From assembly GCF_000237995.1 (NCBI RefSeq), contig NC_016605.1:186001-250000 (forward strand): a DNA stretch of 64,000 nt, read 5' to 3'. The notes under the pieces were generated by a model. It was not told the DNA's origin. It did no database searches and worked only from the letters and a program-made list of their open reading frames with translations. Below, piece after piece: positions 2,799 through 58,547 of the stretch; the stretch's first letter is position 1; every line of letters begins with the position of its first letter. The DNA is from Pediococcus claussenii ATCC BAA-344 (GTDB lineage Bacteria > Bacillota > Bacilli > Lactobacillales > Lactobacillaceae). Made by a program: the position numbers and the translations under genes.

Positions 2799-2921
2799 GA
2801 GAGGGTGCAACAAGCCGTTTAGTTCCTAAGCATTAACGGAAAATGGTAATTATGAAGTTTTAGGTCTTGGTTACCATTTGGAGTTAAGCGAAAGAAAACT
2901 GGATCGTTAAGCTTGTCTCAA
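2799..2921 (+). repeat. Nested-hairpin repeat, copy A
   Basis: One of eight related palindromic elements. Its left arm reads GAGAGGGTGCAACAAGCC and its right arm ends AAGCTTGTCTCAAC. Nested pairings are GAG/CTC, CAAGC/GCTTG, TTAAC/GTTAA and an inner 9-bp stem AAATGGTAA/TTACCATTT. By comparison with the other copies it is in plus orientation, so it is antisense to the flanking minus-strand genes. There is no T-run, so it is not an ordinary terminator. Confidence 0.7.
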
Positions 2922-2951
2922 CTACAAACAGAAGATTAACACAACTAAATG

Positions 2952-3923
2952 CTAATCTCCATTGAAAATGGTATTGCGTACAATAGTATACCCAACTTTT
3001 CTAATAGCTTCTAAGTTGCGACCGCCGGAATATGAAATTGATGATTGTAAGTCTTCTTTCATTTCACTAAGTGTGTCAAGGATACTATTTTTTGCTGGGA
3101 CCCAAAGCTTTTTGCCCTCGACGTTTTTATGAATACCTTTTTGATACTCTGAGGCGCTCCCAAAGTATTCTTTAAATGTTTTTCCGTCCTCAACTTTAGT
3201 CTTACCAGGAGATTCAATGTGGCCGGCCATTAAAGATCCAATCATTACCATACTGGCACCAAAGCGGATTGATTTAGCTATATCACCATTTGTTCGGATT
3301 CCACCATCGGCAATGATGGGTTTACGAGCCGCAGAAGCGCATGCCTTAATAGCAGAAAGTTGCCAGCCACCAGTACCAAATCCTGTTTTAACCTTGGTGA
3401 TGCAGGCTCTACCGGGACCGATTCCAACTTTGGTAGCATCTGCACCGGCTTCTTCGAGGTCAATTACGGCTTGCGGAGTGCCAACGTTACCAGCAATCAC
3501 GAAACTTGCTGGAAGGTGCTTTTTTAGATATTTAATCATATTAATAACGGATAGAGAATGACCATGCGCTATATCGATGGTGATGTAATCAGGAGTGAGG
3601 CGTTTTTCTACGAGAGAATCAATAAAGCGATATTCATCAGCTTTAACGCCAACGCTAATAGAACTAAATAGTTCGGCCTTTTTCATCTCTTTGATGAAAT
3701 CGATTCGACTTTCAGGATTAAATCTGTGCATAACATAAAAATAACCATTCTTTGCTAATAATGTTGCAATTTTTTCATTGATAACAGTTTGCATGTTTGC
3801 TGGAATTACTGGAATTTTAAAAGTCCTATTTCCGAACTTTACTGTTGTATCACATTCAGATCGGCTATTGACGACACACATTTCAGGGATGAGCTGAATA
3901 TCTTCATAATCGAATGATTCCAT
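2952..3923 (-). CDS. guaC: GMP reductase
   Basis: Catalyses NADPH-dependent conversion of GMP to IMP in purine salvage. The 323-residue protein aligns closely along its whole length with Bacillus subtilis GuaC. Hallmarks are [13 protein letters not shown] at the start, PANMQT (41-46), and the catalytic loop [15 protein letters not shown] with the thioimidate Cys at 174, followed by [11 protein letters not shown] and [16 protein letters not shown] chose the ATG at 3923: it has AAGGAG 10 nt upstream and matches homologue N-termini, whereas an in-frame ATG at 3956 would add 11 unsupported residues. It is a single gene with a possible PurR operator upstream. Confidence 0.93.
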
Positions 3924-3973
3924 GACATTAAATCTCCTTAGTTTTAAAAATAACATTAAACAACCATTTAATA

Positions 3974-4018
3974 ATATACGAAATATATAATTAAATCAAC
4001 CTTAAATAGTTCGTATAT
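3974..4018 (-). promoter_or_regulatory. Candidate PurR operator: two inverted PurBox-like sites
   Basis: ATATACGAAATAT (3974-3986) and, on the other strand, ATATACGAACTAT (4006-4018) each match the PurBox consensus AWWWCCGAACWWT with one or two changes. They face each other, 19 bp apart, about 50-95 bp upstream of the guaC start. Inverted PurBox pairs are the PurR/PRPP-responsive arrangement in Bacillus and relatives, usually with 16-17 bp spacing. The assignment is inference. Confidence 0.5.
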
Positions 4019-4032
4019 AATCAAAAATAAAC

Positions 4033-4077
4033 AAAAAAAGTAACTATCACTACGTCATACGTAGGATAATTACTTTT
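4033..4077 (-). terminator. Terminator of the lmrB-DUF4811 operon
   Basis: A hairpin pairs AAAAGTAA-type arms and an inner TACGT/ACGTA stem. On the minus strand it is followed by a run of seven T. It lies directly after the DUF4811 stop codon. Confidence 0.8.
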
Positions 4078-4090
4078 GAAATTATGCGAA

Positions 4091-4855
4091 TTATTTTTTA
4101 GCCTCGGCTATTAATTTATCCATGGCTTTAGCTTGAAATTCTGCCCCATATTTAGCAGCGGCCTCTTTAGAAGTTTGCTGAATAAGAGCTTGCTTTGATT
4201 TTGGACTTAATTGTGGGTCCTTCATCATGGCCTTCATAACAGTTTCCTTAACTGTTGCTTCAACCTTAGGCTTAACGTAAGCTTCGCCCTCGCTCTTCAT
4301 CTTTCCTTGGTTGGCCTTTACAAGTTTTTGTAGCTTAGCAGCTTGTGTAGTTGAAAAATTTTGCCAATCCTTTGGTATATAAAAGATATTGTGACGTTTA
4401 ATTAATTTGTGATTATTATCAGCGATTCCAAACCAGAATTTGTAGGCACCGTTCTTGTAAACCCAACGAGTTGTTTTTGTAACTAACTTTGCATCTTCGT
4501 TGTTAGAATCTTTTACTACATTACTGGTTTTATCAACTGGAGTATGACCAGGTTTCTTTTGATCTTCGGTTTTTTTATAAATGTAAACTTGTTCAGTTCC
4601 CTTTGTGCCAATGTTTTGATATAAAAGCATTGGCATCTGCTTAGAAGGAGATGGTGAGTATATTTTACTAGAAGTTTCTTCCGTAACTTTTTTCATACCA
4701 AAATGCTCACGATCATTTAATACCATTGCAGTCATACTTCCAATAATAATAATTGCAAATAGAAATGATGTAATGATACGTGGCAAGGATTTTGAAATTA
4801 ATGCCATGGAAATAAATAGACAGAGTACTGCCAATATTAGAAGGTAAATAATCAT
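4091..4855 (-). CDS. DUF4811-type membrane-anchored protein
   Basis: 254 residues with two closely spaced N-terminal hydrophobic helices (about 1-20 and 27-47). An extracytoplasmic domain follows, then an alanine/lysine-rich helical C-terminus (about 165-254). The architecture and the position immediately after an LmrB-type exporter match the DUF4811 family of lactobacilli. Its ATG overlaps the exporter stop codon by one base (TAATG), so the two are translationally coupled. This suggests an accessory role to the exporter; the biochemical function is unknown. Confidence 0.72.
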   Translation of the reverse strand: MIIYLLILAVLCLFISMALISKSLPRIITSFLFAIIIIGSMTAMVLNDREHFGMKKVTEETSSKIYSPSPSKQMPMLLYQNIGTKGTEQVYIYKKTEDQKKPGHTPVDKTSNVVKDSNNEDAKLVTKTTRWVYKNGAYKFWFGIADNNHKLIKRHNIFYIPKDWQNFSTTQAAKLQKLVKANQGKMKSEGEAYVKPKVEATVKETVMKAMMKDPQLSPKSKQALIQQTSKEAAAKYGAEFQAKAMDKLIAEAKK

Positions 4856-6333: not shown

Positions 6334-6371
6334 AAATTTACATCTTCTTTCATAAAAAATAAGTCTAGAAT

Positions 6372-6433
6372 AATATAGCCCCTTAATTAATCTTTGTCAA
6401 CTTATTTGACAAACGTGTCAAAAAATATACAAT
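6372..6433. promoter_or_regulatory. Divergent promoters with palindromic MerR/GlnR-like operator
   Basis: Leftward promoter for lmrB: TTGACA as the complement of 6395-6400, 17-bp spacer, TATATT as the complement of 6372-6377. Rightward promoter for the MerR gene: TTGACA 6406-6411, 16-bp spacer, TACAAT 6428-6433. Over them lie TTGTCAA-N5-TTGACAA (6394-6412) and TTTGACAAACGTGTCAAA (6405-6422), giving three half-sites. The site TGTCA-N7-TGACA (6395-6411) fits the TGTNA-N7-TNACA consensus known for MerR-fold GlnR/TnrA. Confidence 0.7.
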
Positions 6434-6489
6434 GGTTGTTGTAATTGTTTACAAGGGTATTTGATTTAAATAAAATATAGGTGATAATT

Positions 6490-6945
6490 ATGGATATGGA
6501 AAGTGCAACAGAACGTTTTAAAAGGGTCAAATTTCTTTTAAACCAAGAAGCTCTCCTATTAAGTATTGGGGATGTTGCAAAAGCAATTGGCTCAACAACA
6601 CGTCAACTTAGGTATTGGAAAAAGAAAGGATACATTAATGGTATTCAATCTGGAACTGGTCAACGTAAATTTAATTATCCTGAAGTAATTAGAGCGGGTG
6701 TTATTCAGGGGCTAATTGAAGATGGATATACCTTATCAGGGGCGGTAAAACGCTCTAAAGAAAATGATTTTGTGTTTAAAGAATTAAGGGAATTACTGTC
6801 AGAGCGCTTTAATAATGTATATGAAAGAGACGACGGAGTCGAATTTGATTTGGGGGAAATTGAGGATTGTGAGCCTAATCAACATTTATTCGTTGTTTTA
6901 AGAAATAATGGAAAAAACGGATTCCGAATTGGTTCACACGATTAA
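6490..6945 (+). CDS. MerR/GlnR-fold transcriptional regulator, probably of lmrB
   Basis: A 151-residue DNA-binding protein. The winged HTH of the MerR superfamily spans about residues 20-90: LSIGDVAKAIGSTTRQLRYW, followed by the wing GTGQRKFNYPEVIR. The RQLRYWKKKGYI segment is closer to the GlnR branch (RQIRYYE) than to metal-sensing MerR. The C-terminal 60 residues lack the cysteines of metal sensors and are acidic in part. Divergent orientation to lmrB and the shared palindrome point to control of the exporter and of itself. ATG 6490 is chosen because AGGTGA lies 5 nt upstream; the GTG at 6481 would overlap that site. Confidence 0.85.
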   Translation: MDMESATERFKRVKFLLNQEALLLSIGDVAKAIGSTTRQLRYWKKKGYINGIQSGTGQRKFNYPEVIRAGVIQGLIEDGYTLSGAVKRSKENDFVFKELRELLSERFNNVYERDDGVEFDLGEIEDCEPNQHLFVVLRNNGKNGFRIGSHD

Positions 6946-7003
6946 AATTAATTGACTAGAAGCTAGTAAGTATTATAGAATCAGAATGTAATTAAATAGC
7001 AGG

Positions 7004-7126
7004 TTCATCTTCAAGGGGCAGGGTGTAATTCCCGACCGGTGGTACAGTCCATGACCCGTCGTTTTGGCGGTTGATTCGGTGTAATTCCGAAACCGATAGT
7101 TAAAGTCTAGATAAAGGAAGATTGAA
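7004..7126 (+). ncRNA. FMN riboswitch (RFN element)
   Basis: The conserved RFN blocks are present in order: GGGGCAGGGTG, CCCGACCGGTGGT, ACAGTCC, GACCCG, TTGATTCGGTG and CCGAAACCGATAGTTAAAGTC. The closing P1 stem is TTCATCTTC (7004-7012) with GAAGAT and TGAA (7117-7126). It controls ribU downstream. A terminator hairpin follows at 7171-7207, consistent with transcription attenuation when FMN is bound. Confidence 0.95.
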
Positions 7127-7170
7127 TTTATTTGCGTATTTAGTCTTTTTCAATTTTTTTGATAAAAACT

Positions 7171-7207
7171 AAAGCCATTGCCCCTTTTTTTGAGCAATGG
7201 CTTTTTT
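7171..7207 (+). terminator. Terminator of the FMN riboswitch expression platform
   Basis: The stem AAAGCCATTGC (7171-7181) pairs with GCAATGGCTTT (7194-7204) and is followed by a T-run. It lies between the RFN aptamer and the ribU start codon, so it is the likely switching element. Confidence 0.85.
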
Positions 7208-7254
7208 GCGTAAATAGACCAAGAAGGTGCTCCTACAATTAGGAGGAATTTTTG

Positions 7255-7830: not shown

Positions 7831-7840
7831 TAAGAGGTTC

Positions 7841-7907
7841 AAAAACGGGATGTCCCTAAAATGGTTTGTATTACAACAAATCTTTTTAGGAATATCCCGT
7901 TTTTTTT
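7841..7907 (+). terminator. Terminator after ribU
   Basis: A two-stage hairpin (AAAAACGGGAT with ATCCCGTTTTT, inner CCTAAAA with TTTTTAGG) ends in a run of eight T. Confidence 0.85.
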
Positions 7908-11847: not shown

Positions 11848-13125
11848 GTGGCAAAACGACTTTGGATGATTTTTGGGCCAATCGTGGTTGCTGCACTTGT
11901 CTTAGCAGCGCTCCTATTTTCCCCATTCAAAATAGATGGTATTAGCTCGAAAACCGAGAGACAGGCGGCAACATCGCTATCACCAAATGTGTTTAAGGGT
12001 CAAGAAATTAAGCAGCGCTCACTTAGTAGTGGCTATTATGTTCCTTTCTTTGGTTCTTCCGAATTATCACGTTTTGATCTAGCACATCCGTCTGTTTTAG
12101 CAGAAAAATATAACAGGAATTACAGACCTTTTCTATTAGGAGCACCTGGTACGCAGTCTCTTACTCAGTATTTCCAAATGCAATCAATTAGTTCTGATAT
12201 GAAAAATCGAAAAGCAGTTTTTGTGATTTCTCCTCAGTGGTTTGTTAAACAAGGAACTAATCCTAAATATTTCCAATTCTATTTTTCTGCGATGCAAGCA
12301 ACTAGTTTTATTTATCAAAATCATAAATCAACACCAGCTTCGCGTTATGCGGCAAAGCGTTTGGTAGCACTTGAGGGTCCAACTTTAAATGCGCGTTTGA
12401 AAGATGCACTTATTAAGATGGGTCAAGGAAAGCCAATTTCTAGTGAAGATAAAACATACTTTGAGTATTATTCTCGCTTATTGAGACATGAGGATCAGTT
12501 ATTCTCTGGTATTAGATTGGGTAACAATGTCGGTACTATTGATAAGCAAGAAGCTAAATTACCAAATAATGATAATTCCAAGGAAGTTCAAGAGGCTGTC
12601 AATAAAGAGGCTAAGGCAGAAACGACTAATAATCCATTTAAGATTAAAAACAGTTTCTACAGCAAGCGTTTAAAGAATAATATTGGACGTAAGATAAAGC
12701 CTGGCTTTGAAAAGAATTATGATTATACTGAATCACCAGAATTTGCAGATTTTCAATTGGTATTAGATCAGTTTAACAGGCAGAACACTAATGTTATGTT
12801 TATTATTCCGCCTATTAACGAACGTTGGGCTAAATATGCTGGCTTATCAATGAACATGATAAGAGAATTTGATAAAAAGATTAATTATCAATTGAAGGAA
12901 CAGGGCTTTACAAATGTGGTTGATTTAACGAAGGATGGTTCAAAACCATACTTTATGGAAGATACGATTCACATTGGTTGGAACGGTTGGTTAGCTGTTG
13001 ATAAGAAAGTTAAACCATTCCTTGAAAAGAAGCAGAAGGAGCCTAAGTACCATATTGAAGATCGATTCTTGTCTAAGGATTGGCAATATTTAAATCCGAA
13101 CGATATTAGTTCATTCAAAAAGTAA
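11848..13125 (+). CDS. dltD: D-alanyl transfer protein DltD
   Basis: A 425-residue protein with one N-terminal membrane helix (about 5-27) and an SGNH-like extracytoplasmic domain. It takes part in the final transfer of D-alanine to lipoteichoic acid. Family signatures are PFFGSSELSRFDLAHPS (near 65-81), with the Ser of GSSE as nucleophile, and EDTIHIGWNGW (near 370-380), which supplies the Asp and His. It starts with GTG at 11848, two bases after dltC. The operon ends here; a hairpin repeat and then a strong terminator follow the stop. Confidence 0.95.
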   Translation: MAKRLWMIFGPIVVAALVLAALLFSPFKIDGISSKTERQAATSLSPNVFKGQEIKQRSLSSGYYVPFFGSSELSRFDLAHPSVLAEKYNRNYRPFLLGAPGTQSLTQYFQMQSISSDMKNRKAVFVISPQWFVKQGTNPKYFQFYFSAMQATSFIYQNHKSTPASRYAAKRLVALEGPTLNARLKDALIKMGQGKPISSEDKTYFEYYSRLLRHEDQLFSGIRLGNNVGTIDKQEAKLPNNDNSKEVQEAVNKEAKAETTNNPFKIKNSFYSKRLKNNIGRKIKPGFEKNYDYTESPEFADFQLVLDQFNRQNTNVMFIIPPINERWAKYAGLSMNMIREFDKKINYQLKEQGFTNVVDLTKDGSKPYFMEDTIHIGWNGWLAVDKKVKPFLEKKQKEPKYHIEDRFLSKDWQYLNPNDISSFKK

Positions 13126-13133: not shown

Positions 13134-13237
13134 CAGAGAGTAAAACAAGCTGATTAGCTTGTGAGGATTACTTTGTTTCACAAAGTCACTCATAATGTCG
13201 GCCATTCCTATGGGCGAAGAGCGCCTCGTAACTAGCA
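13134..13237 (+). repeat. Nested-hairpin repeat, copy B (truncated, two-module)
   Basis: It starts nine bases after the dltD stop. The first part (GAGAG, then ACAAGCTGATTAGCTTGTGAGGA) resembles module 1 of the family. The rest resembles module 2: hairpin CTTTGTTTCACAAAG, then ACTCATA, then GGCG/CGCC. The 3' half of the second long stem is missing compared with the copy at 58.4 kb. It lies between the dlt operon and its terminator, so it would be in the dlt mRNA 3' end. Confidence 0.6.
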
Positions 13238-13242: not shown

Positions 13243-13284
13243 AAAAGACGAACGATGAATGGGCTATTCATCGTTCGTCTTTTT
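13243..13284 (+). terminator. Terminator of the dlt operon
   Basis: A perfect 18-bp stem (13243-13260 with 13266-13283), loop GGGCT, T-run. The right half is also the left end of repeat family 2. Confidence 0.9.
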
Positions 13285-13374
13285 GTATTTAAGCGGAATG
13301 ATTTGACTTATTTCTCGCATTTTTGCTATTTAGTTTGAAAAATAAATTCAGCTTTTAATTATGTCACGCTTCGA
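13264..13374 (+). repeat. Repeat family 2, copy 1
   Basis: About 110 bp that align with 27497-27602, starting at GCTATTCATCGTT. They share AGCGGAAT-ATTTGACTTATTTC, GCTATTTA and GCTTTTAATTAT/GCTTTAATTAT blocks. I judge identity at roughly three quarters by eye. No open frame or transposase remnant is recognisable. Confidence 0.6.
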
Positions 13375-15960: not shown

Positions 15961-16014
15961 AATGACATTGGTGTCATTTTGTAGTATAGTACATTTAATG
16001 ACATAAGTGTCATC
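15961..16014. promoter_or_regulatory. Twin TetR operators in a divergent promoter
   Basis: AATGACATTGGTGTCATT (15961-15978) and AATGACATAAGTGTCATC (15997-16014) are 18-bp palindromes with the same TGACA-N4-TGTCA core, centred 36 bp apart. For the rightward gene, ATGACA (15962-15967), 17-bp spacer, TATAGT (15985-15990) forms a promoter whose -35 is inside operator 1. Operator 2 covers the transcription start region. Confidence 0.8.
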
Positions 16015-16030
16015 AAATGGAGGGAAGAAC

Positions 16031-16639
16031 ATGGATTCAAAAGAACGTACTCAAAGATTAGTTACAAGGGCCATTTTTATTGCTATTATTGCATTACAAA
16101 CCATGGTTCCAGCACTAGGTTATATTCCGTTAGGATTTGTATCTTTAACGATTATTCATATCACAGTTATTGTAGCAGCAATTATGATGGGACCTGTTGA
16201 CGGTATGCTAATTGGTTTTGTTTGGGGGGCGCTTACTGTTGTTCGCGCGTTTATGACACCAACCAGTCCGCTGGATACCATCATTTTTACTAACCCAATT
16301 GTGTCCGTAATACCTCGTGTACTTGTTGGACTAGTTGCTGGTTTAGTATTCCGGACATTGTATCGCAAGTTTGAAAACTTAACGGTCGCAAGTATTGTAG
16401 CAGCAATATTCGGAACTTTAACAAATACTTTTTTGGTTGTTACCCTCATGGGTACATTATACACATCTACGCTCACAAAAAGTTACAATGTTTCAAGCGC
16501 AGGCTTAGTAAAAGTATTAATGGGAATAATCGGATCAAATGGAGTTGTTGAAGTGGGAGCTGCAGTTGTTATCACGCCCTTGATTATCCAAGCTTTGTCG
16601 AAAACAAGAAAAGAATTCTCAAATATGTATACTAAGTAA
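16031..16639 (+). CDS. ECF transporter S-component, substrate unassigned
   Basis: A 202-residue membrane protein of the ECF S-component fold with about six helices. It begins with a basic cytoplasmic stretch (KERTQRLVTRAIF). The family-typical loop AAIMMGPVDGMLIGFVWGAL (near 53-72) is followed by FTNPIVSVIPRVLVGLVAGL. It would bind a vitamin or micronutrient and work with a shared EcfAA'T module not in this window. No riboswitch precedes it; control appears to be by the divergent TetR regulator, which is unusual for this class. The ATG at 16031 has GGAGGG 6 nt upstream. Confidence 0.82.
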   Translation: MDSKERTQRLVTRAIFIAIIALQTMVPALGYIPLGFVSLTIIHITVIVAAIMMGPVDGMLIGFVWGALTVVRAFMTPTSPLDTIIFTNPIVSVIPRVLVGLVAGLVFRTLYRKFENLTVASIVAAIFGTLTNTFLVVTLMGTLYTSTLTKSYNVSSAGLVKVLMGIIGSNGVVEVGAAVVITPLIIQALSKTRKEFSNMYTK

Positions 16640-16771
16640 AGCGTAGGAATGGACCGTTTAGTTTTGAGGGATAATGAAGGACGATACTTGATGTTTTTTC
16701 AAGGCTCCGTCCTTGGTTATTCGCAGAAAATTGGCTTTCACTCATTCTATTTTGTCAGCCCAATAATGCTT

Positions 16772-16810
16772 AAAAAGAGTAGAACAAGCTCAGCTTGTTC
16801 TACTCTTTTT
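16772..16810. terminator. Bidirectional terminator
   Basis: A perfect 19-bp stem with a single-base loop, A-run left and T-run right, between the convergent ECF and FAD-protein genes. A second hairpin without a T-run (AAGGACG/CGTCCTT with inner CTTGA/TCAAG, about 16677-16713) precedes it in the ECF 3' region. Confidence 0.9.
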
Positions 16811-16821
16811 AAATACATATT

Positions 16822-21937: not shown

Positions 21938-22146
21938 TGTGTTGCATGAGGCACCTCCTTCCGTCTAGCTAAGTAAGCCATCGTGACCAAAAGCGTCATA
22001 ATGGTTCACTCTGCTGCCAGTTTCCATGAGTCGGTTTTTGACCATGGAAATGGACAACGTATGAGTATAAAAAGTTTTGTGAAACAAAACTCACATTACT
22101 AGACGAGCTAGTATACTCAGGAGTTAATCGCCTCATTACACACTCT
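21938..22146 (-). repeat. Nested-hairpin repeat, copy C (two-module, minus orientation)
   Basis: Read on the minus strand it begins AGAGTGTGTAATGAGGCG and ends CGGAAGGAGGTGCCTCAT. Outer pairs are ATGAGGC/GCCTCAT and AACTCC/GGAGGT. Inserted between the arms is a module 2 (AGTTTTGTTTCACAAAACT hairpin, then TTTCCATGG/TCATGGAAA) like the one at 58.4 kb. The inner hairpin CCATTATGAC/GTCACGATGG matches copies E2 and E3. It fills the gap between the MATE gene and the first paralogue. No coding potential is seen. Confidence 0.7.
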
Positions 22147-33359: not shown

Positions 33360-33455
33360 TCCTTGTGGCAAGTTATCTATTATGATAAACTTGGGTTCGT
33401 TGATTTATAAATAACTATGATTCAGCATATGATTCATGGCAAAGGAGCGATAATT

Positions 33456-43809: not shown

Positions 43810-44098
43810 TGGTTACGAATTGCTTAGTATTCTTTATTTTAGTTAGTGCTCAAAAATTAATCTTATTTATTGCGTTCTTTTGATGTTAAAGATGACCGTG
43901 TCTAGCTCTCAGTTCAGCTACTTTTAATTTAGCAAAAATGGCAGCATGTTAAGAAAGGCTGTGTTTTGTCAAACTATATAAAAATGCAGAAAAAGGGCTA
44001 GAGTTGGCGAACTATGTTCCACGCAATATTTCAAAGCCCTTTTTCAGGAGCTAACAAAAATAGAGGGGCAAACTCGTACCCAAGTATGCTATGATAAA
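43810..44098. other. Intergenic region before queT
   Basis: About 290 bp without a credible gene. It holds a long hairpin (GAAAAAGGGCT 43989-43999 with AGCCCTTTTTC 44035-44045) that looks like a terminator of either strand. No promoter stands out with certainty, and no homology to the hairpin-repeat families is seen. Confidence 0.5.
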
Positions 44099-44140
44099 TC
44101 CCGTGGTTCGCAATTATCCCACGTAAAAAAACTAAGGAGG
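44098..44140 (+). ncRNA. PreQ1 riboswitch, class I
   Basis: P1 stem CGTGG (44102-44106) with CCACG (44119-44123), loop TTCGCAATTATC, then the A-rich tail TAAAAAAACTAAGG (44124-44137) that forms the pseudoknot. The layout matches short preQ1-I aptamers of Thermoanaerobacter and Bacillus queuosine operons. The tail runs into the ribosome binding site AAGGAGG, so ligand binding should reduce translation of queT. Confidence 0.88.
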
Positions 44141-44149
44141 AATAGTTTG

Positions 44150-50622: not shown

Positions 50623-51444
50623 ATGGAAGAAAAAGCAGGGATAAAAGATCAAAGTGAAACCAAGGAACCTTTGATAGGCTATGTCCACTCAATTGAGACA
50701 TTTGGATCGGTTGATGGTCCAGGCATTCGATACGTTGTGTTTCTACAGGGATGTCACATGCGCTGTCAATATTGCCATAATCCTGATACATGGAAATTAA
50801 ACGTTGGCGATAAAATGACAACCGATCAGATTTTGGATGATGCTGAAAAGTACCGCGCTTTCTGGGGCAAAACCGGTGGGATTACAGTTAGTGGTGGAGA
50901 GGCACTTGTTCAAGTTGACTTTGTTTTAGAATTATTTGAAAAAGCGAAGGAAAGAAATATCAGCACGTGTCTTGATACAGCTGGGCAACCATTTACCAGA
51001 GAGCAACCATTTTTTGATAAATTTGAGCGGTTAATGCAAGTTACTGATATTTCTCTAGTTGATATTAAGCATATTAATTCAAAAGAGCATAAAAAATTAA
51101 CGCAGTATGGTAACGAAAATATTTTGGATATGATTCAATATATGGCGGCACACCATAATGATATTTGGATTCGCCATGTACTAGTTCCACAAAGAACGGA
51201 TTATGATAATTATCTGGCAGAATTAGGTGATTATATTGCTAAAATTCCTAACGATATTGTTCAAAAAGTTGAAGTATTACCATATCATACGCTGGGTGTG
51301 AAGAAGTATCATGAAATGAAGATTAAATACCGTCTGGAGGGAATTGAAACTCCAACTCCAGATAGGGTGGCAAATGCTGAAAAATTGTTGCATACCAACG
51401 ACTATACTGGATACAGAAATTGGATGCCGATGCCAAAATTGTAG
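50623..51444 (+). CDS. pflA: Pyruvate formate-lyase activating enzyme
   Basis: A 273-residue radical-SAM enzyme that puts the glycyl radical on PflB. The [4Fe-4S] motif is GCHMRCQYCHNPD (CxxxCxxC, about 42-54), the SAM-binding GGE is in ITVSGGEALVQ, and it ends with TPTPDRVANAEKLL. Its stop codon TAG is formed by the first bases of a hairpin repeat. It needs Fe-S clusters, which the suf operon 1.5 kb downstream can supply. Confidence 0.96.
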   Translation: MEEKAGIKDQSETKEPLIGYVHSIETFGSVDGPGIRYVVFLQGCHMRCQYCHNPDTWKLNVGDKMTTDQILDDAEKYRAFWGKTGGITVSGGEALVQVDFVLELFEKAKERNISTCLDTAGQPFTREQPFFDKFERLMQVTDISLVDIKHINSKEHKKLTQYGNENILDMIQYMAAHHNDIWIRHVLVPQRTDYDNYLAELGDYIAKIPNDIVQKVEVLPYHTLGVKKYHEMKIKYRLEGIETPTPDRVANAEKLLHTNDYTGYRNWMPMPKL

Positions 51445-51562
51445 AGAGCGGAGCAAGCCGTTTAGCTTCTGAGGATTAACAGGAAAAGGGAATTATGACG
51501 AACTTGGTCATGGTTCCCTTTTCAGGTTAACCGGAGGAAGCTGGCTTGTGTAGCTCGTTTCT
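51444..51562 (+). repeat. Nested-hairpin repeat, copy D
   Basis: It begins at the last base of the pflA stop. Pairs from outside in: GAGC/GCTC, CAAGCC/GGCTTG, AGCTTC/GAAGCT, TTAAC/GTTAA, GAAAAGGGAA/TTCCCTTTTC, ATGAC/GTCAT, loop GAACTTG. The right end is GTAGCTCGTTTC. It precedes the pfl terminator, so it is carried in the pflBA mRNA 3' end. Confidence 0.8.
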
Positions 51563-51901
51563 GCTATAAAACTCTCATGAAACTGAGTGTCAAATGGAAA
51601 TACTTTCTAAAAATCACCCTTAAAACTAAAGTTCATAATAACTTGTGAAGTCCTTCTAAAAAATTGTTTTTTAGGAGGATTTTTATTTTGCATGAGAGGT
51701 CAATATTTAACTTCTGATAGAAATTTTTATTAAAAATAAGGCCTAGAATAGAAGCACTATAAACTGCCTCAACGAATATTGAAAAATCAACCAAAGCACT
51801 ATTAAATCAACGATTATTTTTGAAAACCGTATTGAATATAAGTGGTATCAAAGTATAATAAAGTTGGTAATGAAAACGTTTTACTGGCAGAGGAGAAGGA
51901 T
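51563..51901. other. Intergenic region between pflA element and VIT gene
   Basis: After the repeat there is AT-rich sequence with the pfl terminator (51651-51684), then about 200 bp without recognisable signals up to the GAGGAGAAGG binding site at 51891. An open frame from 51842 is in phase with the VIT gene, but its first 20 residues have no support. Confidence 0.5.
51651..51684 (+). terminator. Terminator of the pfl operon
   Basis: Stem TCCTTCTAAAAAA/TTTTTTAGGAGGA with one G-U pair, then TTTTTATTTT. Confidence 0.85.
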
Positions 51902-52504
51902 ATGGAACGTATATCAATCGGAAAGATTAATTGTTTTAGATTTTGGGACAGTTTGAGCGTTTTACGTGCAGGAATTCTTGGTGCAAATGATGGTATCATT
52001 TCAGTATCAGGAATCGTTTTGGGTGCTGTGGGTGCTGACCTGAATAGTTCGACGCTCTTTTTTAGTGGAATTGCGGGAATGATTGCGGGAGCGTGCTCAA
52101 TGGCTGGGGGAGAATATATTTCAGTTAGTGCACAAAGGGATGTGCAACGTAACAAAATTGAACTACAACAAAAATATAAGGAAATTGATAGAAAAGAGTC
52201 CGATACGCTCATTAGAAGTATCGATGTCCTTAATCCTTTTCATGCTTCGATTTCATCGTTCTTTTCGTTTATACTAGGTTCATTAATCCCATTAACGGCG
52301 ATTAGTTTGTCAACGAGCCGGTGGAGAGTAATCAATACGGTGATCGCGATGATTGTGGCATTAACCTTAAATGCGGTTGTTAGTTCAGCGCATTCAGAAA
52401 TATCAACAAGACGAACAATAGCCCGAAATATTGCAGTAGGAATTATAACAATTGTGTTAACGTATGCGATTGGAAGTTTGTTCGGGGTGTCGGCAGCGGG
52501 ATAA
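51902..52504 (+). CDS. VIT1/CCC1 family Fe2+/Mn2+ transporter
   Basis: A 200-residue membrane protein with about five helices. The family start RAGILGANDGIISVSGIVLGAVGA (about 21-44) and the loop MAGGEYISVSAQRDVQR (about 72-88) are intact. The acidic linker EIDRKESD is shorter than in longer homologues. The eukaryotic relatives move Fe2+ or Mn2+ out of the cytosol; the bacterial role is likely metal export or detoxification. Position between pfl and suf suggests an iron link. Start by GAGGAGAAGG. Its stop is followed at once by three hairpin repeats. Confidence 0.85.
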   Translation: MERISIGKINCFRFWDSLSVLRAGILGANDGIISVSGIVLGAVGADLNSSTLFFSGIAGMIAGACSMAGGEYISVSAQRDVQRNKIELQQKYKEIDRKESDTLIRSIDVLNPFHASISSFFSFILGSLIPLTAISLSTSRWRVINTVIAMIVALTLNAVVSSAHSEISTRRTIARNIAVGIITIVLTYAIGSLFGVSAAG

Positions 52505-52509
52505 AAAAA

Positions 52510-52625
52510 GAGAGTGAAGCAAGCTGGTCAGTTTTTGAGGATTAACAGAAGTAGATACATTGGCGGTTTAGGCCAAGGTAGCTACTTGGGTTAACCGGAA
52601 AAAATTAGCTTGAGTAACTCGTTTC
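52510..52625 (+). repeat. Nested-hairpin repeat, copy E1
   Basis: First of three tandem copies after the VIT gene. Pairs: CAAGCT/AGCTTG, AGTTTTT/AAAAAATT, TTAAC/GTTAA, AAGTAG/CTACTT and TTGGC/GCCAA with loop GGTTTAG. The right end reads GTAACTCGTTTC. Sequence of the stems differs from E2 and E3 while pairing is kept. Confidence 0.8.
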
Positions 52626-52633
52626 AGAAAAAA

Positions 52634-52751
52634 GAGAGAGTGGATGGAGGCGGTTAGCTCCTGAGTATTAGCATGTTCCACCATTATGACGCTTTTGGTC
52701 ATGATGGGGGAATGGGCTAAACGGAGGGAGTTGCCTCAAGTAACTCGTTTC
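52634..52751 (+). repeat. Nested-hairpin repeat, copy E2
   Basis: Pairs: GAGT/ACTC, GAGGC/GCCTC, AGCTCC/GGAGTT, TTAGC/GCTAA, then an inner hairpin CCATTATGAC/GTCATGATGG with loop GCTTTTG. It differs from E3 by two substitutions only (at about 52645 and 52727). Confidence 0.8.
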
Positions 52752-52758
52752 AGAAAAA

Positions 52759-52876
52759 GAGAGAGTGGATAGAGGCGGTTAGCTCCTGAGTATTAGCATG
52801 TTCCACCATTATGACGCTTTTGGTCATGATGGGGGAATGGGCTAAACGGAAGGAGTTGCCTCAAGTAACTCGTTTT
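52759..52876 (+). repeat. Nested-hairpin repeat, copy E3
   Basis: Near-identical tandem duplicate of E2 at a period of 125 bp. It ends about 40 bp before the sufC start. There is no terminator between the VIT gene and sufC apart from these hairpins. Confidence 0.8.
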
Positions 52877-52918
52877 AAATCAAAAAAATAGTAAAACCGT
52901 CTAAAAGAGAGGTAAACA

Positions 52919-53740
52919 ATGGCAACTTTAGAAATAAAAAACTTACACGTACGAATTAACGATCCTGAGAATAAGGACACAAGAGAAATTCTTAAGGGCG
53001 TTGACTTAGTTATTAAAACGGGTGAAACTCACGCAATTATGGGGCCTAATGGAACTGGAAAATCAACACTTTCGGAAACTATAATGGGTAATCCTCGTTA
53101 TGAGATAACACAGGGTGATATTTTGATTGACGGACAAAGTTTACTTGAATTACCTGTTGATGAACGAGCACGAGCTGGACTATTTTTAGCGATGCAATAT
53201 CCGGTAGAAATTAAAGGTATAACCAATATGGAATTCATGCGGGCTGCTATCAATGCCAGAAGGGATGATGACGATCAGATGTCAGTTAGGGATTTCCTTA
53301 AAGAGCTAGACAGAAACCTAGATATTTTGAATATGTCGGAATCAATGGCCCGTCGTTATTTGAACGAAGGCTTTTCTGGTGGCGAAAAAAAGCGAAATGA
53401 AATTTTGCAGTTGATGATGATTAAACCCAAGTTTGCCATTCTTGATGAAATTGATTCTGGCCTTGATATTGATGCGCTTCAAGTTGTGGCTAAAGGTGTT
53501 AACGCAATGGCATCACCTGATTTTGGTACATTGATGATTACCCATTACCAACGTCTGTTAAATTACATAAAGCCAGATTTTGTACATGTCATGATGGACG
53601 GCAGAATTGTTAAGACGGGTGACGCAAAATTAGCCCTTAAATTAGAAGATGAAGGCTATGCAGGCTTACGTGACGAATTGGGAATTGAAGCAAAACTGGT
53701 AGATGATGATTTATCGGAGGCGAACCCTGATGGCATTTAA
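52919..53740 (+). CDS. sufC: Fe-S cluster assembly ATPase SufC
   Basis: A 273-residue ABC-type ATPase that works with SufB and SufD in building Fe-S clusters. Walker A MGPNGTGKSTLS (about 41-52), signature LNEGFSGGEKKRNEI (about 148-162), Walker B FAILDEIDSGLD, and the His switch MITHYQRLL. The start has GAGAGG. It is the first gene of sufCDSUB plus the SufT-like gene, all overlapping or nearly so. Confidence 0.96.
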   Translation: MATLEIKNLHVRINDPENKDTREILKGVDLVIKTGETHAIMGPNGTGKSTLSETIMGNPRYEITQGDILIDGQSLLELPVDERARAGLFLAMQYPVEIKGITNMEFMRAAINARRDDDDQMSVRDFLKELDRNLDILNMSESMARRYLNEGFSGGEKKRNEILQLMMIKPKFAILDEIDSGLDIDALQVVAKGVNAMASPDFGTLMITHYQRLLNYIKPDFVHVMMDGRIVKTGDAKLALKLEDEGYAGLRDELGIEAKLVDDDLSEANPDGI

Positions 53741-54959
53741 AAACGAGCCAGTGTGGTTTAAGGATTTACAAGAAACCGTTCAACAGGAAATTCAAAATTT
53801 AAAAATGCCTAATTTAGATCGTTTTGACTATCATCGGTGGAATTTAGATCAAATTGATGAAATGGCAGATGCCGAATCGTCCCCAATACCAAAGGATCTA
53901 TCTAAACAACAACTTGTAAGCTTTGGCGATGCTGTTCACATTAAACTAAGTCAGGAAATGATCGATGCTGGATTAGTCGTCGAGGACTTTAAAACAGCTT
54001 TTGAAAATCATTCTGATTTGCTACAGAGATATTTTATGACGAAAGCTGTACGACTAACCGAAGATAAACTAACCGCACTAAATTTGGTGCGCCTGAACCT
54101 CGGCGTTTTCGTGTATGTCCCAGCAAACGTTCAAATTACAGAGCCCCTCCAGATGTTGATGATTCAAAATAGTTTAGCCAAATCCAATTATTTTGGACAT
54201 GTTTTGATTGTAACGGAGCGAAATAGTTCACTCAAAGTATTACAACAGCTTGAGACGAGGGGAGATATTGCCAATCGTTTTCATTTAATTACTGAAGTTG
54301 TTGCATTAGAAAATAGTCAAGTTGAGTTTACTGGATTGGACTTATTAGCCGAAAAAACAACGTCGTATATTAATCGAAGAGGATACTTGGATGATGCTGC
54401 ACGAATCGACTGGTCAATTGGTGTCTTTAACGATGGAAATACGATTGCGGATTTTGATTCGGATTTAAAAGGTAGCGGATCCGATTCTGAGGTGAAAGTT
54501 GTAGCACTGTCTGGTGGAAAGCAACGCCAATGCATTGATACGAGGGTCACAAACTATGCGCCGTATTCAACTGGGAACATTACTCAACGTGGTGTTATCT
54601 TAGGCAGTTCTGAGCTAATTTTTAATGGTATCGGCAAGATCATTAAGGGCGCACATGGTGCCAGAGCTAACCAAGAAAATAGGGTTTTGATGTTGTCGGA
54701 TAAGGCACATGGTGATGCTAACCCAATTCTTCTAATTGATGAAAATGATGTTTTGGCTGGACATGCAGCAAGTGTTGGTCGGGTTGATGAACATCAGATG
54801 TATTATCTAATGAGTCGCGGTATACCTAAAAAAGTAGCGCAGCGTTTAGTGATTCGTGGTTTTCTTGGTGATGTTTTGAGTAAGTTACCTTCGGAAAAGT
54901 TAAGAAATCAAATGATTGATGTAATCGAGGAGAAGTTAAAAAATGAATTGGAAAATTAA
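53730..54959 (+). CDS. sufD: Fe-S cluster assembly protein SufD
   Basis: A 409-residue scaffold partner of SufB and SufC with the beta-helix core typical of the SufBD family. It contains VFVYVPANVQITEPLQML and, near the end, NPILLIDENDVLAGHAASVG and [20 protein letters not shown]. The ATG at 53730 lies inside sufC (11-nt overlap) with GGAGGC upstream; a frame from 53703 exists without binding site. The pattern of overlaps indicates translational coupling. Confidence 0.95.
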   Translation: MAFKNEPVWFKDLQETVQQEIQNLKMPNLDRFDYHRWNLDQIDEMADAESSPIPKDLSKQQLVSFGDAVHIKLSQEMIDAGLVVEDFKTAFENHSDLLQRYFMTKAVRLTEDKLTALNLVRLNLGVFVYVPANVQITEPLQMLMIQNSLAKSNYFGHVLIVTERNSSLKVLQQLETRGDIANRFHLITEVVALENSQVEFTGLDLLAEKTTSYINRRGYLDDAARIDWSIGVFNDGNTIADFDSDLKGSGSDSEVKVVALSGGKQRQCIDTRVTNYAPYSTGNITQRGVILGSSELIFNGIGKIIKGAHGARANQENRVLMLSDKAHGDANPILLIDENDVLAGHAASVGRVDEHQMYYLMSRGIPKKVAQRLVIRGFLGDVLSKLPSEKLRNQMIDVIEEKLKNELEN

Positions 54960-56178
54960 TGAAGTTCGCAAAGATTTTCCGATTTTAGATCAGCAAGTTA
55001 ACGGCGAACGATTGGCATATTTGGATAATGCGGCCACTATGCAGCAATCAAGACCAGTGACGGATGCTGTTTTACATTACTATCAGACCACTCATTCAAA
55101 TGTTCATCGTGGAGTGTATACGTTGTCGAATCAGGCAACGGATATGTATGAGCAGGCTCGTGAAAAAGTAGCTCATTTTATTAACACGGAAAGTAGTGAG
55201 CAAATTGTGTTCACACGATCAACAACCGAGAGCTTGAACCTTGTTGCCCAGGGATTTGGAGACGCAGTCGTTAATCCTGGTGATGAGATTGTGATTTCGG
55301 TAGCAGAGCACCATAGTAACTTGATTCCATGGCAACAGCTTGCTAGTAGAAGATCTGCACATTTAAAATACATCGAATTGAACGAAGACGGTTCTTTTGA
55401 TATGGATAGTGCAACTCGTGTAATTACGAAAAAAACGAAGATTGTTGCGGTAGCCCACGTAGGAAATGTTATTGGTATTCAAAATCCGATAAACAAACTT
55501 GAACAGTTAGCTCATAAAGTTAACGCTTATTTAGTAGTTGATGGTGCACAGGCGGTGAGTCATATGGCTGTTGATGTGCAAGAGTTGAATGCTGATTTTT
55601 ATGCATTTTCGGGTCATAAACTAGGCGCACCAACCGGAATTGGAGTATTATTTGGGAAATCTAATTTACTTGCTAAAATGAATCCAGTCCAATTTGGTGG
55701 TGAAATGATCAGTAAAGTCACGAGAGATGTTGCAACATGGAAAAAAACACCATTAAAGTTTGAAGCTGGCACACCAAATATTAGTGGTGCAATTGGATTA
55801 GGCGTGGCGATCGACTATGTTCAGAAGATGGGATTAAAATCAATTCAAGATTATGAAGAAAAGTTAATGCAACGCATGTTGACAGGAATTGAAGGGATTT
55901 CAGGGGTTACAATTTATGGCCCCCACAATACCAAGAAGAGATTGGGTGTACTGTCTTTCAATATTGATGGTGTCCATCCTCACGATGTGGCAACTGGACT
56001 AGATTTATTGGGAATCGAAGTACGAGCTGGCCATCATTGTGCACAACCGTTGATGCAGGATTTAGGAGTGGCAGCCACTGCACGAGCAAGCATTGCTTTT
56101 TATAATAATATGGCGGACGTTGACCAATTAATCGACGGGGTTAAACAAGTAAAGGAGTTCTTTTTGCATGAGTCTTGA
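54943..56178 (+). CDS. sufS: Cysteine desulfurase SufS
   Basis: A 411-residue PLP enzyme that takes sulfur from cysteine and passes it to SufU. It contains AYLDNAATMQQSRPVTD, AEHHSNLIPWQ, the PLP Lys in FSGHKLGAPTGIG, and the active-site Cys in RAGHHCAQPLM. It starts 17 bases before the sufD stop with GAGGAG upstream. It belongs to the group II desulfurases that need SufU. Confidence 0.96.
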   Translation: MNWKINEVRKDFPILDQQVNGERLAYLDNAATMQQSRPVTDAVLHYYQTTHSNVHRGVYTLSNQATDMYEQAREKVAHFINTESSEQIVFTRSTTESLNLVAQGFGDAVVNPGDEIVISVAEHHSNLIPWQQLASRRSAHLKYIELNEDGSFDMDSATRVITKKTKIVAVAHVGNVIGIQNPINKLEQLAHKVNAYLVVDGAQAVSHMAVDVQELNADFYAFSGHKLGAPTGIGVLFGKSNLLAKMNPVQFGGEMISKVTRDVATWKKTPLKFEAGTPNISGAIGLGVAIDYVQKMGLKSIQDYEEKLMQRMLTGIEGISGVTIYGPHNTKKRLGVLSFNIDGVHPHDVATGLDLLGIEVRAGHHCAQPLMQDLGVAATARASIAFYNNMADVDQLIDGVKQVKEFFLHES

Positions 56179-56617
56179 TCAAATGAATGATTTATACCGG
56201 GAAGTCGTATTAGACCATGCACAGCATCCTCACCATTATGGCCAAATTGGCAAAGACAGTGTTCATTTTCAAATGGAAAATCCAACCTGCGGAGACGTGA
56301 TTGATGTATCAGCAATTATTAAAGATGGAAATGTTGATGAGATTGGATTTACTGGAACTGGGTGTACGATTTCGCAGGCGTCAGCAAGTATGATGACAAC
56401 AGTGTTGACGAATAAATCAGTAAGCGAAGCACGTGATCTTATTTTGAGTTTTTCAGACTTGATCACTGGGAAAGAAATTAACGATAAAAAAGAGGACCAA
56501 CTTGGAGATGCCAGTTTGTTAGCCAGTGTGGCAGAATTTCCGGCAAGAATAAAATGTGCTACCTTAGCCTGGCATGCATTGGACGAGTTATTGCAGAAAG
56601 AGGGAACTTCCAAATGA
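56168..56617 (+). CDS. sufU: SufU zinc-dependent sulfurtransferase
   Basis: A 149-residue protein that accepts sulfur from SufS. Zinc and sulfur ligands are in [10 protein letters not shown] (Cys near 40 and the Asp), [14 protein letters not shown] (Cys near 66) and [13 protein letters not shown] (Cys near 127). The 20-residue insertion typical for SufU compared with IscU is present. It overlaps sufS by 11 bases and its stop overlaps the sufB ATG (ATGA). Confidence 0.95.
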
Positions 56618-58020
56618 GCGATGTAGAATCAATTGTGCGCGATACAGAAGATTACGATTATGGCTTTCATGATGATGTTACACCTGTCTTCTCGACGGGA
56701 CACGGATTGAGTGAAGAAGTTGTTAGGAAAATTTCGGCTGAAAAACATGAACCGCAATGGATGTTAGATTATCGTTTGCAATCTTATGAAGCGTATAAAA
56801 AGATGCCAATGCCCAATTTTGGCCCTGATTTAAGTGGTTTGGATTTAAAGAATATGCTGTACTATCAAAAAGCGACGGATAAGAAATATCGTGATTGGGA
56901 TGACGTTCCGGAAAAGATTAAAACAACCTTTGATCGTTTAGGAGTCCCAGAAGCTGAGCGAAAGTATCTGGCAGGTTCGTCCGCACAGTATGAATCCGAG
57001 GTGGTCTACCATAATATGCGTGAAACGTTTGAAAAAATGGGCATAATTTTTACGGATACCGATACGGCTTTGCAAGAGTATCCGGAGTTATTTAAGAAGT
57101 GGTTTGGAAAGCTAGTAAAGCCCACTAATAATAAGTTTGCTGCTCTTAACAGTGCTGTTTGGTCGGGAGGAACTTTTATTTATGTGCCAAAGGGTGTCCG
57201 TGCCAAGACTCCAATTCAATCTTATTTTAGAATTAACGCTGAAAATACGGGACAGTTTGAACGAACGCTGATTATTGTCGACGAGGGAGCCAGTGTGGAT
57301 TACGTTGAGGGATGTACGGCTCCAAAGTATGATTCGGATAGCTTACATGCTGCCGTTGTTGAAGTGAATGTCCAAAAAGATGCATATTGCCGTTATACAA
57401 CAATTCAAAACTGGTCAAATAATGTGTATAGTTTGGAAACAAAGCGGGCAGCCGCAGCCGAAAATGCAACGATGGAATGGGTCGATGGTAATATGGGATC
57501 GAAAATCACGATGAAATACCCCTCCGTGTATTTAAATGGTGAGGGTGCGCGTGGAACGATGCTGTCAATTGCCGTCGCAGGACACAACGTTGATCAAGAT
57601 ACAGGGGCACAGATGATTCATAATGCGCCAAATACATCTTCTTCAATTGTCTCGAAGTCGATTGCAAAAGATGGTGGAGCTGTCGATTATCGGGGAAAGG
57701 TTCGTTTTGGAAGAAAGGCGGACGGGTCGTTGGCACATGTCGAGTGTGACACGATTATTATGGACGATAAATCTTCAAGTGATACAATTCCCTATAATGA
57801 AATTTATAATGGTAATGTTGCAATGGAGCATGAGGCCAAGGTATCTAAGATTTCTGAGGAACAACTCTACTATTTGATGAGTCGTGGTATTTCTGAAAAA
57901 AAGGCAACGGAAATGATTGTAATGGGATTTGTGGAGCCCTTTACCAAGGAATTACCGATGGAGTACGCGGTTGAATTGAATCGTTTGATTAGTTTTGAAA
58001 TGGAAGGATCGATTGGATAA
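56614..58020 (+). CDS. sufB: Fe-S cluster assembly protein SufB
   Basis: A 468-residue scaffold protein of the SufBCD complex. It has typical blocks: [33 protein letters not shown] with the cluster-related Cys, [13 protein letters not shown], and at the end [24 protein letters not shown] 56614 overlaps the sufU stop; an in-frame start at 56554 lies deep in sufU and is not likely. Confidence 0.96.
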
Positions 58021-58331
58021 TGGCGGAAGCAACTTTTAAAGAACAGGCATATGAAGCATTAAGCCACGTGATTGACCCAGAGCTGGATGTGGATTTGGTT
58101 AGTATGGGCCTGATTTACGATGCTAAGTTGACTGACGAAGGGGTGGCAGAAATCACAATGACATTAACAATTGTGGGATGCCCTTTAACGGAATGGTTGG
58201 CGGATGCGATCCAAAAAGAAATCCAGAAAATAAAAGGGATAAAAGAAATCGAGATTGAAATCGTGTGGGAACCAGCCTGGTCAGAAGAAATGATGACAAG
58301 GGAAGCAAGGGTGCAATTGGGAATATATTAG
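58020..58331 (+). CDS. SufT/MIP18-like Fe-S assembly factor (DUF59)
   Basis: A 103-residue protein of the DUF59/MIP18 family, associated with cluster maturation in many bacteria. It contains VIDPELDVDLVSMGLIYDA (about 18-36) and LTIVGCPLTEWLADAI with the conserved Cys, ending VQLGIY. The ATG overlaps the sufB stop (TAATG). The stop TAG is shared with the first bases of the following repeat. Confidence 0.9.
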   Translation: MAEATFKEQAYEALSHVIDPELDVDLVSMGLIYDAKLTDEGVAEITMTLTIVGCPLTEWLADAIQKEIQKIKGIKEIEIEIVWEPAWSEEMMTREARVQLGIY

Positions 58332-58547
58332 AGAGAGCGAAGCAAGCCGTTTAGCTTCTGAGGAATAACTGGAAACGTCGGATTGACGAACTTGTTCGTC
58401 GAGCAGAGGTTTCAGGTTATCCGCAGGAAGCTGGTACTAGCTCGTCAAGAAATGAAGCTTTGTTGCACAAAGCAGGATACTCATACGCGGACCATTCCAA
58501 TGGGCGAACTACGCCTCATTGGAACTGGTCTGTGTAAGCTCATTTTA
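58330..58547 (+). repeat. Nested-hairpin repeat, copy F (two-module)
   Basis: Module 1 (58330-58437) pairs AGCTTC/GAAGCT, ATAAC/GTTAT and GACGAAC/GTTCGTC. Module 2 (58438-58547) has CTTTGTTGCACAAAG and a long stem GACCA-TTCCAATG-GGCG with CGCC-TCATTGGAA-CTGGTC. The element starts inside the stop codon of the SufT-like gene. No terminator with a T-run follows, so the suf transcript may run into the hydrolase gene. Confidence 0.8.

What the first reader, a model, noticed from the sequence alone, without database searches (positions are those of the whole stretch)
2799..58547. Family of nested-hairpin repeats with compensatory base changes, eight copies
Elements A (2799-2921), B (13134-13237), C (21938-22146, minus), D (51444-51562), E1-E3 (52510-52876) and F (58330-58547) share a frame: GAGAG..., a first arm, CTGAGGA-like spacer, a variable inner hairpin, CCGGA-like spacer, the second arm, and GTAACTCGTTTC-like end. 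The stems vary but stay paired. Outer stem: CAAGCC/GGCTTG in D, CAAGCT/AGCTTG in E1, GAGGC/GCCTC in E2/E3, ATGAGGC/GCCTCAT in C. Inner stem: TTAAC/GTTAA in D, A and E1; TTAGC/GCTAA in E2; ATAAC/GTTAT in F. This covariation implies selection for structure, as RNA or as a DNA cruciform. I know of no named element that fits.
Basis: partly seen in the sequence, partly recalled or inferred. Interest (0 to 1): 0.88.

Follow-up and report, generated by a model that had tools for sequence, protein, structure and literature searches.

The report
Hairpin RNA repeats at gene ends
Many lactic acid bacteria carry a few to over a hundred copies of a long hairpin sequence that usually starts exactly where a gene's protein-coding part stops; the copies differ in letters but keep the same fold, and what they do is still unknown.

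Summary
The repeats form a ~118-nt family (X) with stacked helices (41 base pairs). In 27 own-genome units 33 of 41 pairs show two-sided changes; in 136 matches (122 distinct) from other genomes all 41 do. Sense RNA folds better than antisense in 27 of 27 and 111 of 115 units, and G-U cells outnumber A-C. A covariance model gives 63 matches here, 116 and 100 in sister species, and hits in 189 of 397 Lactobacillaceae genomes but 5 of 398 sampled from the class. Rfam 15 has no match. The main new fact is position: 83 of 128 elements start -8 to +12 nt from the stop codon of a same-strand ORF, 35 sharing the G of a TAG stop; only 1 of 128 lies backwards behind a gene. B, C and F carry a second structured module (Y). 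I read the family as REP/BOX-like repeats living as structured 3'-UTR RNA, probably blocking exonucleases or ribosomes. Fold, position and spread are shown; function and route of spread are inferred. No target duplication, no plasmid or phage match (one unit as query), and no Y1 transposase or reverse transcriptase in this genome was found.

The parts
51444..51561 (+). Element D: complete X unit (helices P0 to P4); its first G is the last base of the TAG stop of the radical-SAM gene 50623-51444
   Evidence: CM 133 bits; fold z -8.4; ORF, Pfam
51652..51687 (+). Intrinsic-terminator-like hairpin downstream of D
   Evidence: sequence
52510..52625 (+). Element E1: X unit, 5 nt after the stop codon of the VIT1-family gene 51842-52504
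   Evidence: CM 112.4 bits; fold z -5.1
52636..52751 (+). Element E2: X unit of the second stem type
   Evidence: CM 108.5 bits; fold z -6.5
52761..52876 (+). Element E3: near-identical tandem copy of E2
   Evidence: CM 106.6 bits; 98% identity to E2
58333..58547 (+). Element F: X unit with a Y module inserted in its tail; 1 nt after the stop of the FeS_assembly_P gene 58020-58331
   Evidence: CM 62.7 bits
58436..58529 (+). Y module inside F (two hairpins)
   Evidence: fold z -3.9
2801..2919 (+). Element A: diverged X unit, antisense to its neighbouring ORFs, not at a stop codon
   Evidence: CM 71 bits; fold z -2.3
13134..13237 (+). Element B: X head (GAGAG at 13136) joined to a 5'-truncated Y module, no P4 or tail; 10 nt after the stop of ORF 11848-13125, followed by a terminator-like hairpin near 13244-13285 (by eye)
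21938..22146 (-). Element C: X unit with a Y module (22016-22112) inserted; antisense to both neighbours
16639..16748 (+). Degenerate ninth X copy directly at the stop codon of ORF 16007-16639; terminator-like hairpin near 16772-16812 (by eye)
   Evidence: CM 26.6 bits, E 0.0003; sequence; fold z -2.4

Best explanation
A family of dispersed structured repeats of Lactobacillales that sit in the 3' UTR of ordinary genes, usually starting at the stop codon. SHOWN by computation: the conserved fold, its sense-strand polarity, its position and orientation at stop codons, gain and loss of units and swapping between family members in two sister genomes, and modular insertion of Y in this genome. INFERRED: the RNA is made as part of the mRNA, before the terminator; the stable hairpin (-41 to -66 kcal/mol in six strong units) acts as a roadblock directly behind the stop codon, against 3'-to-5' exonucleases and/or for the terminating ribosome, as reported for stop-codon-proximal REPs of E. 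coli; and copies spread and are homogenised by recombination or by an unidentified mobilising enzyme. Roughly: dispersed repeat family whose sense strand folds, near certain; an effect on the host mRNA, about 0.5; which effect, open.
For: Covariation: 33 of 41 pairs in 27 own units and 41 of 41 in 136 matches, 122 distinct, 95.1% of cells paired against 62.5% shuffled (that alignment was fitted to the model). Polarity: G-U 95 against A-C 8 (shuffled 147 and 67), or 63 against 8 without the two U-G-rich apex pairs (shuffled 115 and 65), and 288 against 78 in the others (shuffled 574 and 415); sense MFE lower in 27 of 27 and 111 of 115. Position: 83 of 128 at -8..+12 nt from the stop of a same-strand ORF of at least 100 codons; elements lying backwards behind a gene 1 of 128, opposite-strand stop at the element start 0, same-strand stop at the element end 0. 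In 400 kb of G002, 12 of 26 clusters meet -3..12 nt against 3.2% of random intergenic points. Stops used: TAG 43, TAA 37, TGA 3; 35 at exactly -1, all TAG. Context: at the sufB end of Companilactobacillus nodensis and C. insicii the element lies between stop and a terminator; in C. baiquanensis and C. zhongbaensis a terminator follows the stop at once (read by eye). Dynamics between G001 and G002. Spread. No common function among 20 upstream genes tested. REP precedent: passages of PMC12306157.
Against: No expression data were available. 33 of 128 elements show no ORF end at their start, and 9 more have an ORF running 9-40 nt into them; some of the 33 lie right after a T-run, and one weaker copy follows a tRNA-Arg, so translation cannot be the whole story. 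Sense-direction terminators were found after 14 of 22 own arrays but opposite-direction ones in 13 of 22, so that test does not support the point. Swapping and unit deletion show that the sequence is not tightly held at each site. The pairs were defined on the sense strand, which favours G-U over A-C to some degree. A single-stranded DNA intermediate of the sense strand would also give the polarity.
Confidence: 0.55

Rival explanations
1. Selfish non-autonomous mobile element: the folded sense strand (RNA or single-stranded DNA) is what an unidentified enzyme recognises, gene ends are the tolerated or chosen target, and there is no host benefit.
For: Copies in one genome share idioms of the inner hairpin (seen by eye); some sites differ in presence between sister genomes (no model hit at 2 of 14 and 3 of 16 resolved sites); at 2 of 12 compared orthologous sites plainly another member; the authors of the pneumococcal repeat paper favour a parasitic reading for BOX, RUP and SPRITE (passages of PMC3049150).
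Against: No match in plasmids or phages (blastn with D only), no Y1_Tnp and no RVT_1 in this genome, no target duplication at 50 single copies. Tolerance alone does not predict a start within about 10 nt of the stop codon in one orientation (83 against 1 of 128).
Confidence: 0.35
2. Covariation made by a DNA process: quasi-palindrome correction (template switching within an inverted repeat) keeps the arms complementary without any selection on RNA.
For: The arms are near-perfect inverted repeats and whole arms differ between copies.
Against: Such a process is strand-symmetric, yet G-U 95 against A-C 8 and the MFE polarity are asymmetric; internal loop letters and the stop-codon position stay conserved.
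Confidence: 0.05
3. Ordinary intrinsic terminators or remnants of them.
For: Position at gene ends; large stems; the GAGTGGGACAAAAG subfamily in G001/G002 may be part of a giant terminator (by eye).
Against: The X unit ends in a conserved (A/G)TTTC with no U-run behind the stem, and separate terminators follow several arrays.
Confidence: 0.03
4. Recombination sites like integron attC: single-strand hairpins behind the stop codon that mark gene-cassette borders.
For: Position after the stop, variable but complementary arms, and one site where different upstream sequence joins the same element (L170:17021 against L218:16346).
Against: Units lie in tandem and behind ordinary chromosomal genes. 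No integrase and no R/L boxes were looked for.
Confidence: 0.02

Closest known systems
BOX elements of Streptococcus (boxA-boxB(n)-boxC)
   Same: Modular, dispersed, structured repeats; an inner module in 0 to several tandem copies inside an outer frame; enriched between convergent genes (passages of PMC3049150)
   Different: X has its own fold and a sense position at the stop codon; X often occurs without any inner module; by blastn Y was found only in this genome of 12 in the genus. BOX sequences themselves were not aligned to X or Y.
REP/BIME elements of enterobacteria
   Same: Extragenic palindromes in high copy, part of them within 15 nt of a stop codon, with reported ribosome stalling (passages of PMC12306157)
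   Different: About 118 nt with stacked helices and conserved internal loops, against short palindromes (size of REPs recalled); no RAYT-type Y1 transposase in this genome; covarying arms; one orientation to the gene
MITEs (e.g. RUP)
   Same: Small, non-coding, high copy, foldable
   Different: No target duplication seen; structure covaries throughout; terminal pairing 4 bp in this genome but up to 14 pairs in some sister-genome units
Stem-loop families of Cozzuto et al. 2008, e.g. Efa-1 of Enterococcus faecalis
   Same: Intergenic foldable repeat families in bacteria of this order (PMC2267715 passages)
   Different: In the passages seen L. johnsonii is the one lactobacillus, and its family Lac-1 is typed G where other families are typed I; the Efa-1 sequence was not compared here

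Membership tests
Rfam 15 families | Score at or above a family's gathering threshold | tested here: not met
   No family on any element in the window or in 8 and 20 loci; relaxed search on 51000-58700 gave only matches far below gathering scores
BOX elements | boxA-boxB(n)-boxC modules with BOX sequence | not tested
   Modular architecture resembles it, but no BOX model or sequence was aligned
REP / RAYT system | Y1 transposase (TnpA-REP) in the genome | tested here: not met
   PF01797: 0 matches in G000; 5 of 14 control genomes ring
REP / RAYT system | Palindromes within 15 nt of stop codons (feature of part of the E. coli REPs) | tested here: met
   83 of 128 at -8..+12 nt
MITE | Target-site duplication | tested here: not met
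   50 single copies, observed 95 against permuted 103.9, p 0.94; the repeat of flank bases before second units in 24 arrays fits tandem duplication as well
MITE | Terminal inverted repeats related to a resident transposase | tested here: inconclusive
   Ends pair over 4 bp here, more in some sister-genome units; resident IS ends were not compared
Intrinsic terminator | U-run directly after the hairpin | tested here: not met
   Conserved (A/G)TTTC end, alignment A1
Integron attC | IntI integrase and R/L boxes | not tested
   Only the position and fold analogy were considered

The most novel reading that the evidence does not exclude
A stop-codon 3'-UTR regulon: across Lactobacillales, scores of unrelated mRNAs per genome carry one RNA structure, with conserved internal loops (GAGNA opposite N'CGGA), directly behind the stop codon, read by one protein or by the terminating ribosome, giving a global post-transcriptional control layer that has gone unnoticed.
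Probability: 0.3. Interest if true: 0.88.

Novelty: new variant of a known kind. Interest (0 to 1): 0.68.

Why it matters
Structured repeats tied to stop codons over much of a bacterial order of food and gut bacteria would change the 3' ends of a few percent of the mRNAs in richly loaded genomes (45 clusters on this 1.83-Mb chromosome; the percentage is my inference). They allow a direct test of how hairpins behind stop codons act on translation and decay outside E. coli, and they are natural markers and recombination points for comparing strains. I found no description: Rfam 15 has none and paper searches listed none; most subscription journals and preprints are not covered.

Tried and rejected
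Rfam at gathering and relaxed thresholds: nothing on the elements. Own genome for Y1 transposase and reverse transcriptase: none. Plasmids and phages by blastn with unit D only: none. Target-site duplication at single copies: not found. A regulon of related genes: the 20 upstream proteins scanned share no function. Terminator test: inconclusive. An origin-proximal bias as a general rule: strong in G000 (42 of 45 clusters in the origin half), present in G323 (53 of 73), absent in G126 (30 of 55), so kept as a side note. For G126 and G323 only the places listed were used (98 matches each, list cut); for G000 I merged matches by hand and left out three short ones, all in the origin half. dnaA of G002 was not found in the held stretches.

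Rows dropped before counts: the 128-element set holds first units of clusters at about 60 bits or more and leaves out weaker or Y-split hits; G001 and G002 are sister species, so some of its sites are counted twice. One search covered the window and 79 of the 80 loci (L099 left out). One search used 108 clusters, weaker hits included: 84 with a same-strand upstream ORF, 64 of these at -3..12 nt, 21 antisense, 3 unresolved. In one search, 26 of 35 own clusters have a same-strand upstream gene and 23 of the 26 start -1 to 9 nt from its stop; for the other three the model hit starts inside a Y module. One search compared 12 orthologous pairs that I picked; their identities are 0.67, 0.70, 0.72, 0.75, 0.77, 0.86, 0.87, 0.92, 0.97, 0.97, 0.99 and 0.99. 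One search folded 115 distinct units of more than 100 nt out of the 136 matches.

Papers: only passages were read of PMC2267715, PMC1590033, PMC12306157 and PMC3049150; all others were seen in listings only; the study behind ribosome stalling at REPs (reference 17 of PMC12306157) was not opened. The name Pediococcus claussenii for the source genome is a guess from recalled genome and plasmid sizes; tool support is only the brewery-plasmid match of the first 3 kb of one contig (another contig had none) and the SufC neighbours.
Full report
What is there. The eight pieces are real. A, D, E1, E2, E3 and F contain a near-complete ~118-nt unit, X; B, C and F carry a second module, Y, of about 95 nt with two hairpins, truncated in B. 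A degenerate ninth X copy lies at 16639-16748, right at a stop codon.

Fold. From 27 own-genome units the structure is: P0 (4 bp, GAGT/ACTC type), P1 (6 bp, CAACCC/GGGTTG type), a four-base bulge, P2 (7 positions, one often G-G), an internal loop GA opposite GGA, a G-C pair plus a covarying pair with a bulged A (GAGNA opposite N'CGGA), P3 (5 bp, TTAAC/GTTAA type) and a variable P4 of 17 pairs. 94.0% of cells pair against 77.4% in shuffles and 29-49% in slid controls; 33 of 41 pairs have changes on both sides. A covariance model collected 136 matches (122 distinct rows, some loci overlapping) in 68 loci of other genomes; there 41 of 41 pairs have changes on both sides and 95.1% of cells pair against 62.5% shuffled (this alignment is fitted to the model and leans towards it). 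Folding six strong units without alignment gives this nested structure in all six, z from -5.1 to -12.8; A and the ninth copy reach only -2.3 and -2.4. Y covaries less: 7 of 22 pairs, 96.0% paired against 93.1% shuffled, in 27 distinct own-genome copies.

Which strand. G-U cells outnumber A-C cells 95 to 8 (147 and 67 expected from shuffles) in the own units, 63 to 8 (115 and 65) without the two U-G-rich apex pairs, and 288 to 78 (574 and 415) in the others. The sense RNA has the lower free energy in 27 of 27 and 111 of 115 units. A cruciform or a strand-symmetric DNA repair process does not predict this; the pairs were defined on the sense strand, which leans the same way to some degree.

Where. 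In the own genome the nearest upstream gene is on the same strand for 26 of 35 clusters, and 23 of these 26 start -1 to 9 nt from its stop codon. Over 128 elements of about 60 bits or more, 83 start -8 to +12 nt from the end of a same-strand ORF of at least 100 codons (21 of 28 own, 62 of 100 others). Controls on the same 128: an opposite-strand ORF ending at the element's 3' end, as expected if elements also lay backwards behind genes, 1; an opposite-strand ORF ending at the element start, 0; a same-strand ORF ending at the element end, 0. Another 9 ORFs run 9-40 nt into the element, 3 are ORFs of 40-99 codons, and 33 show neither; 9 of 128 shifted control points meet the weaker ORF test. The commonest place is -1 (35 of 83), always a TAG stop running into the element as TAGAG or the like. 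In 400 kb of G002, 12 of 26 clusters meet -3..12 nt against 3.2% of random intergenic points. One weaker copy starts 7 nt behind a tRNA-Arg, and a few elements start right after a T-run, so the common factor may be the gene end and not translation.

How wide. 63 matches in this genome; 12 of 12 genomes of the genus, from 2 to 116 matches each; 189 of 397 Lactobacillaceae genomes and 20 of 40 genera; 76 of 395 in the order, 46 of them in other families and mostly with few copies; 5 of 398 in the class at E up to 1e-5, the window's own genome and one more Lactobacillales genome included. The wide scans use strict filters and score 9 candidates per genome, so copy numbers there are lower bounds. 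Named carriers include Companilactobacillus, Paucilactobacillus, Secundilactobacillus, Lentilactobacillus, Liquorilactobacillus and Lactiplantibacillus species.

How it changes. Behind sufB in 14 Companilactobacillus loci, C. insicii, C. nodensis and C. hulinensis have the element directly at the stop, C. jidongensis has a head-and-tail remnant, and ten have none there; in C. baiquanensis and C. zhongbaensis a terminator follows the stop at once (read by eye). Between the sister genomes G001 and G002, in the held stretches, 12 of 14 resolved G002 sites have a model hit at the same place in G001, and 13 of 16 resolved G001 sites in G002. Of 12 pairs compared, 7 are 86-99% identical and 5 are 67-77%; two of the five (70 and 72%) hold plainly another member, closer to copies elsewhere (77-84%), with both arms changed together although the gene ends match at 88-90%; in the other three an end or flank is rearranged. 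Arrays gain or lose whole units (L172:4837 against L220:1209). Bases in front of the first unit recur in front of the second (91 of 144 against 71.3 permuted, 0 of 20000), but single copies show no target duplication (p 0.94). So units are copied, swapped and deleted by recombination, by an unknown agent, or both.

Function. The 20 upstream genes scanned are mixed (AccA, MTHFR, ABC transporter, glycosyl hydrolase, aldose epimerase, VIT1 and others), so this is not a classical regulon of one pathway. The position recalls REP elements: a 2025 survey states that REPs within 15 nt of a stop codon stall ribosomes (PMC12306157 passages). By that analogy, and because the element lies before a terminator at several sites, I think a stop-codon roadblock or a 3'-end shield on mRNA most likely. 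This step is inferred and untested, and the automatic terminator test was inconclusive (14 of 22 in sense, 13 of 22 in the opposite direction).

Verdict. A real, widespread and, as far as my searches go, undescribed family of structured gene-end repeats; a new variant of the REP/BOX kind, with a sense, stop-codon position and full-length covariation as its distinguishing features.

Noticed in passing
G000 contig C1, about 570-1413 kb: None of the matches lies in 843 kb around the terminus; 42 of 45 clusters lie in the origin half. G323 shows a weaker bias, G126 none.
   Followed up: partly
L002:1601-1809: An element starts 7 nt behind the 3' end of a tRNA-Arg gene, so the gene end need not be a stop codon.
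   Followed up: no
L221:13203-13322 and L179:5598: A more homogeneous subfamily (GAGTGGGACAAAAG...) has a copy here in G001 and none in G002; its head can pair with a sequence just before the terminator T-run, so the whole may form one giant terminator (by eye).
   Followed up: partly
L187, L038, L205, L184, L020 (around the element starts): Elements begin directly after a terminator-like T-run, in L184 after what looks like a T-box terminator (label recalled, not found by Rfam).
   Followed up: no
L170:17021-17140 and L218:16346-16464: The same element and downstream flank are joined to different upstream sequences in two sister genomes.
   Followed up: no
window 7003-7126, 44097-44141, 33415-33447: Known Rfam elements: FMN riboswitch, PreQ1 riboswitch and L31 leader.
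   Followed up: no
L015:1265-1647, L156:7480-7849, L158:2014-2302, G000:C1:1773359-1773644: Tandem arrays of 3 to 4 Y modules, some copies identical or nearly so.
   Followed up: partly
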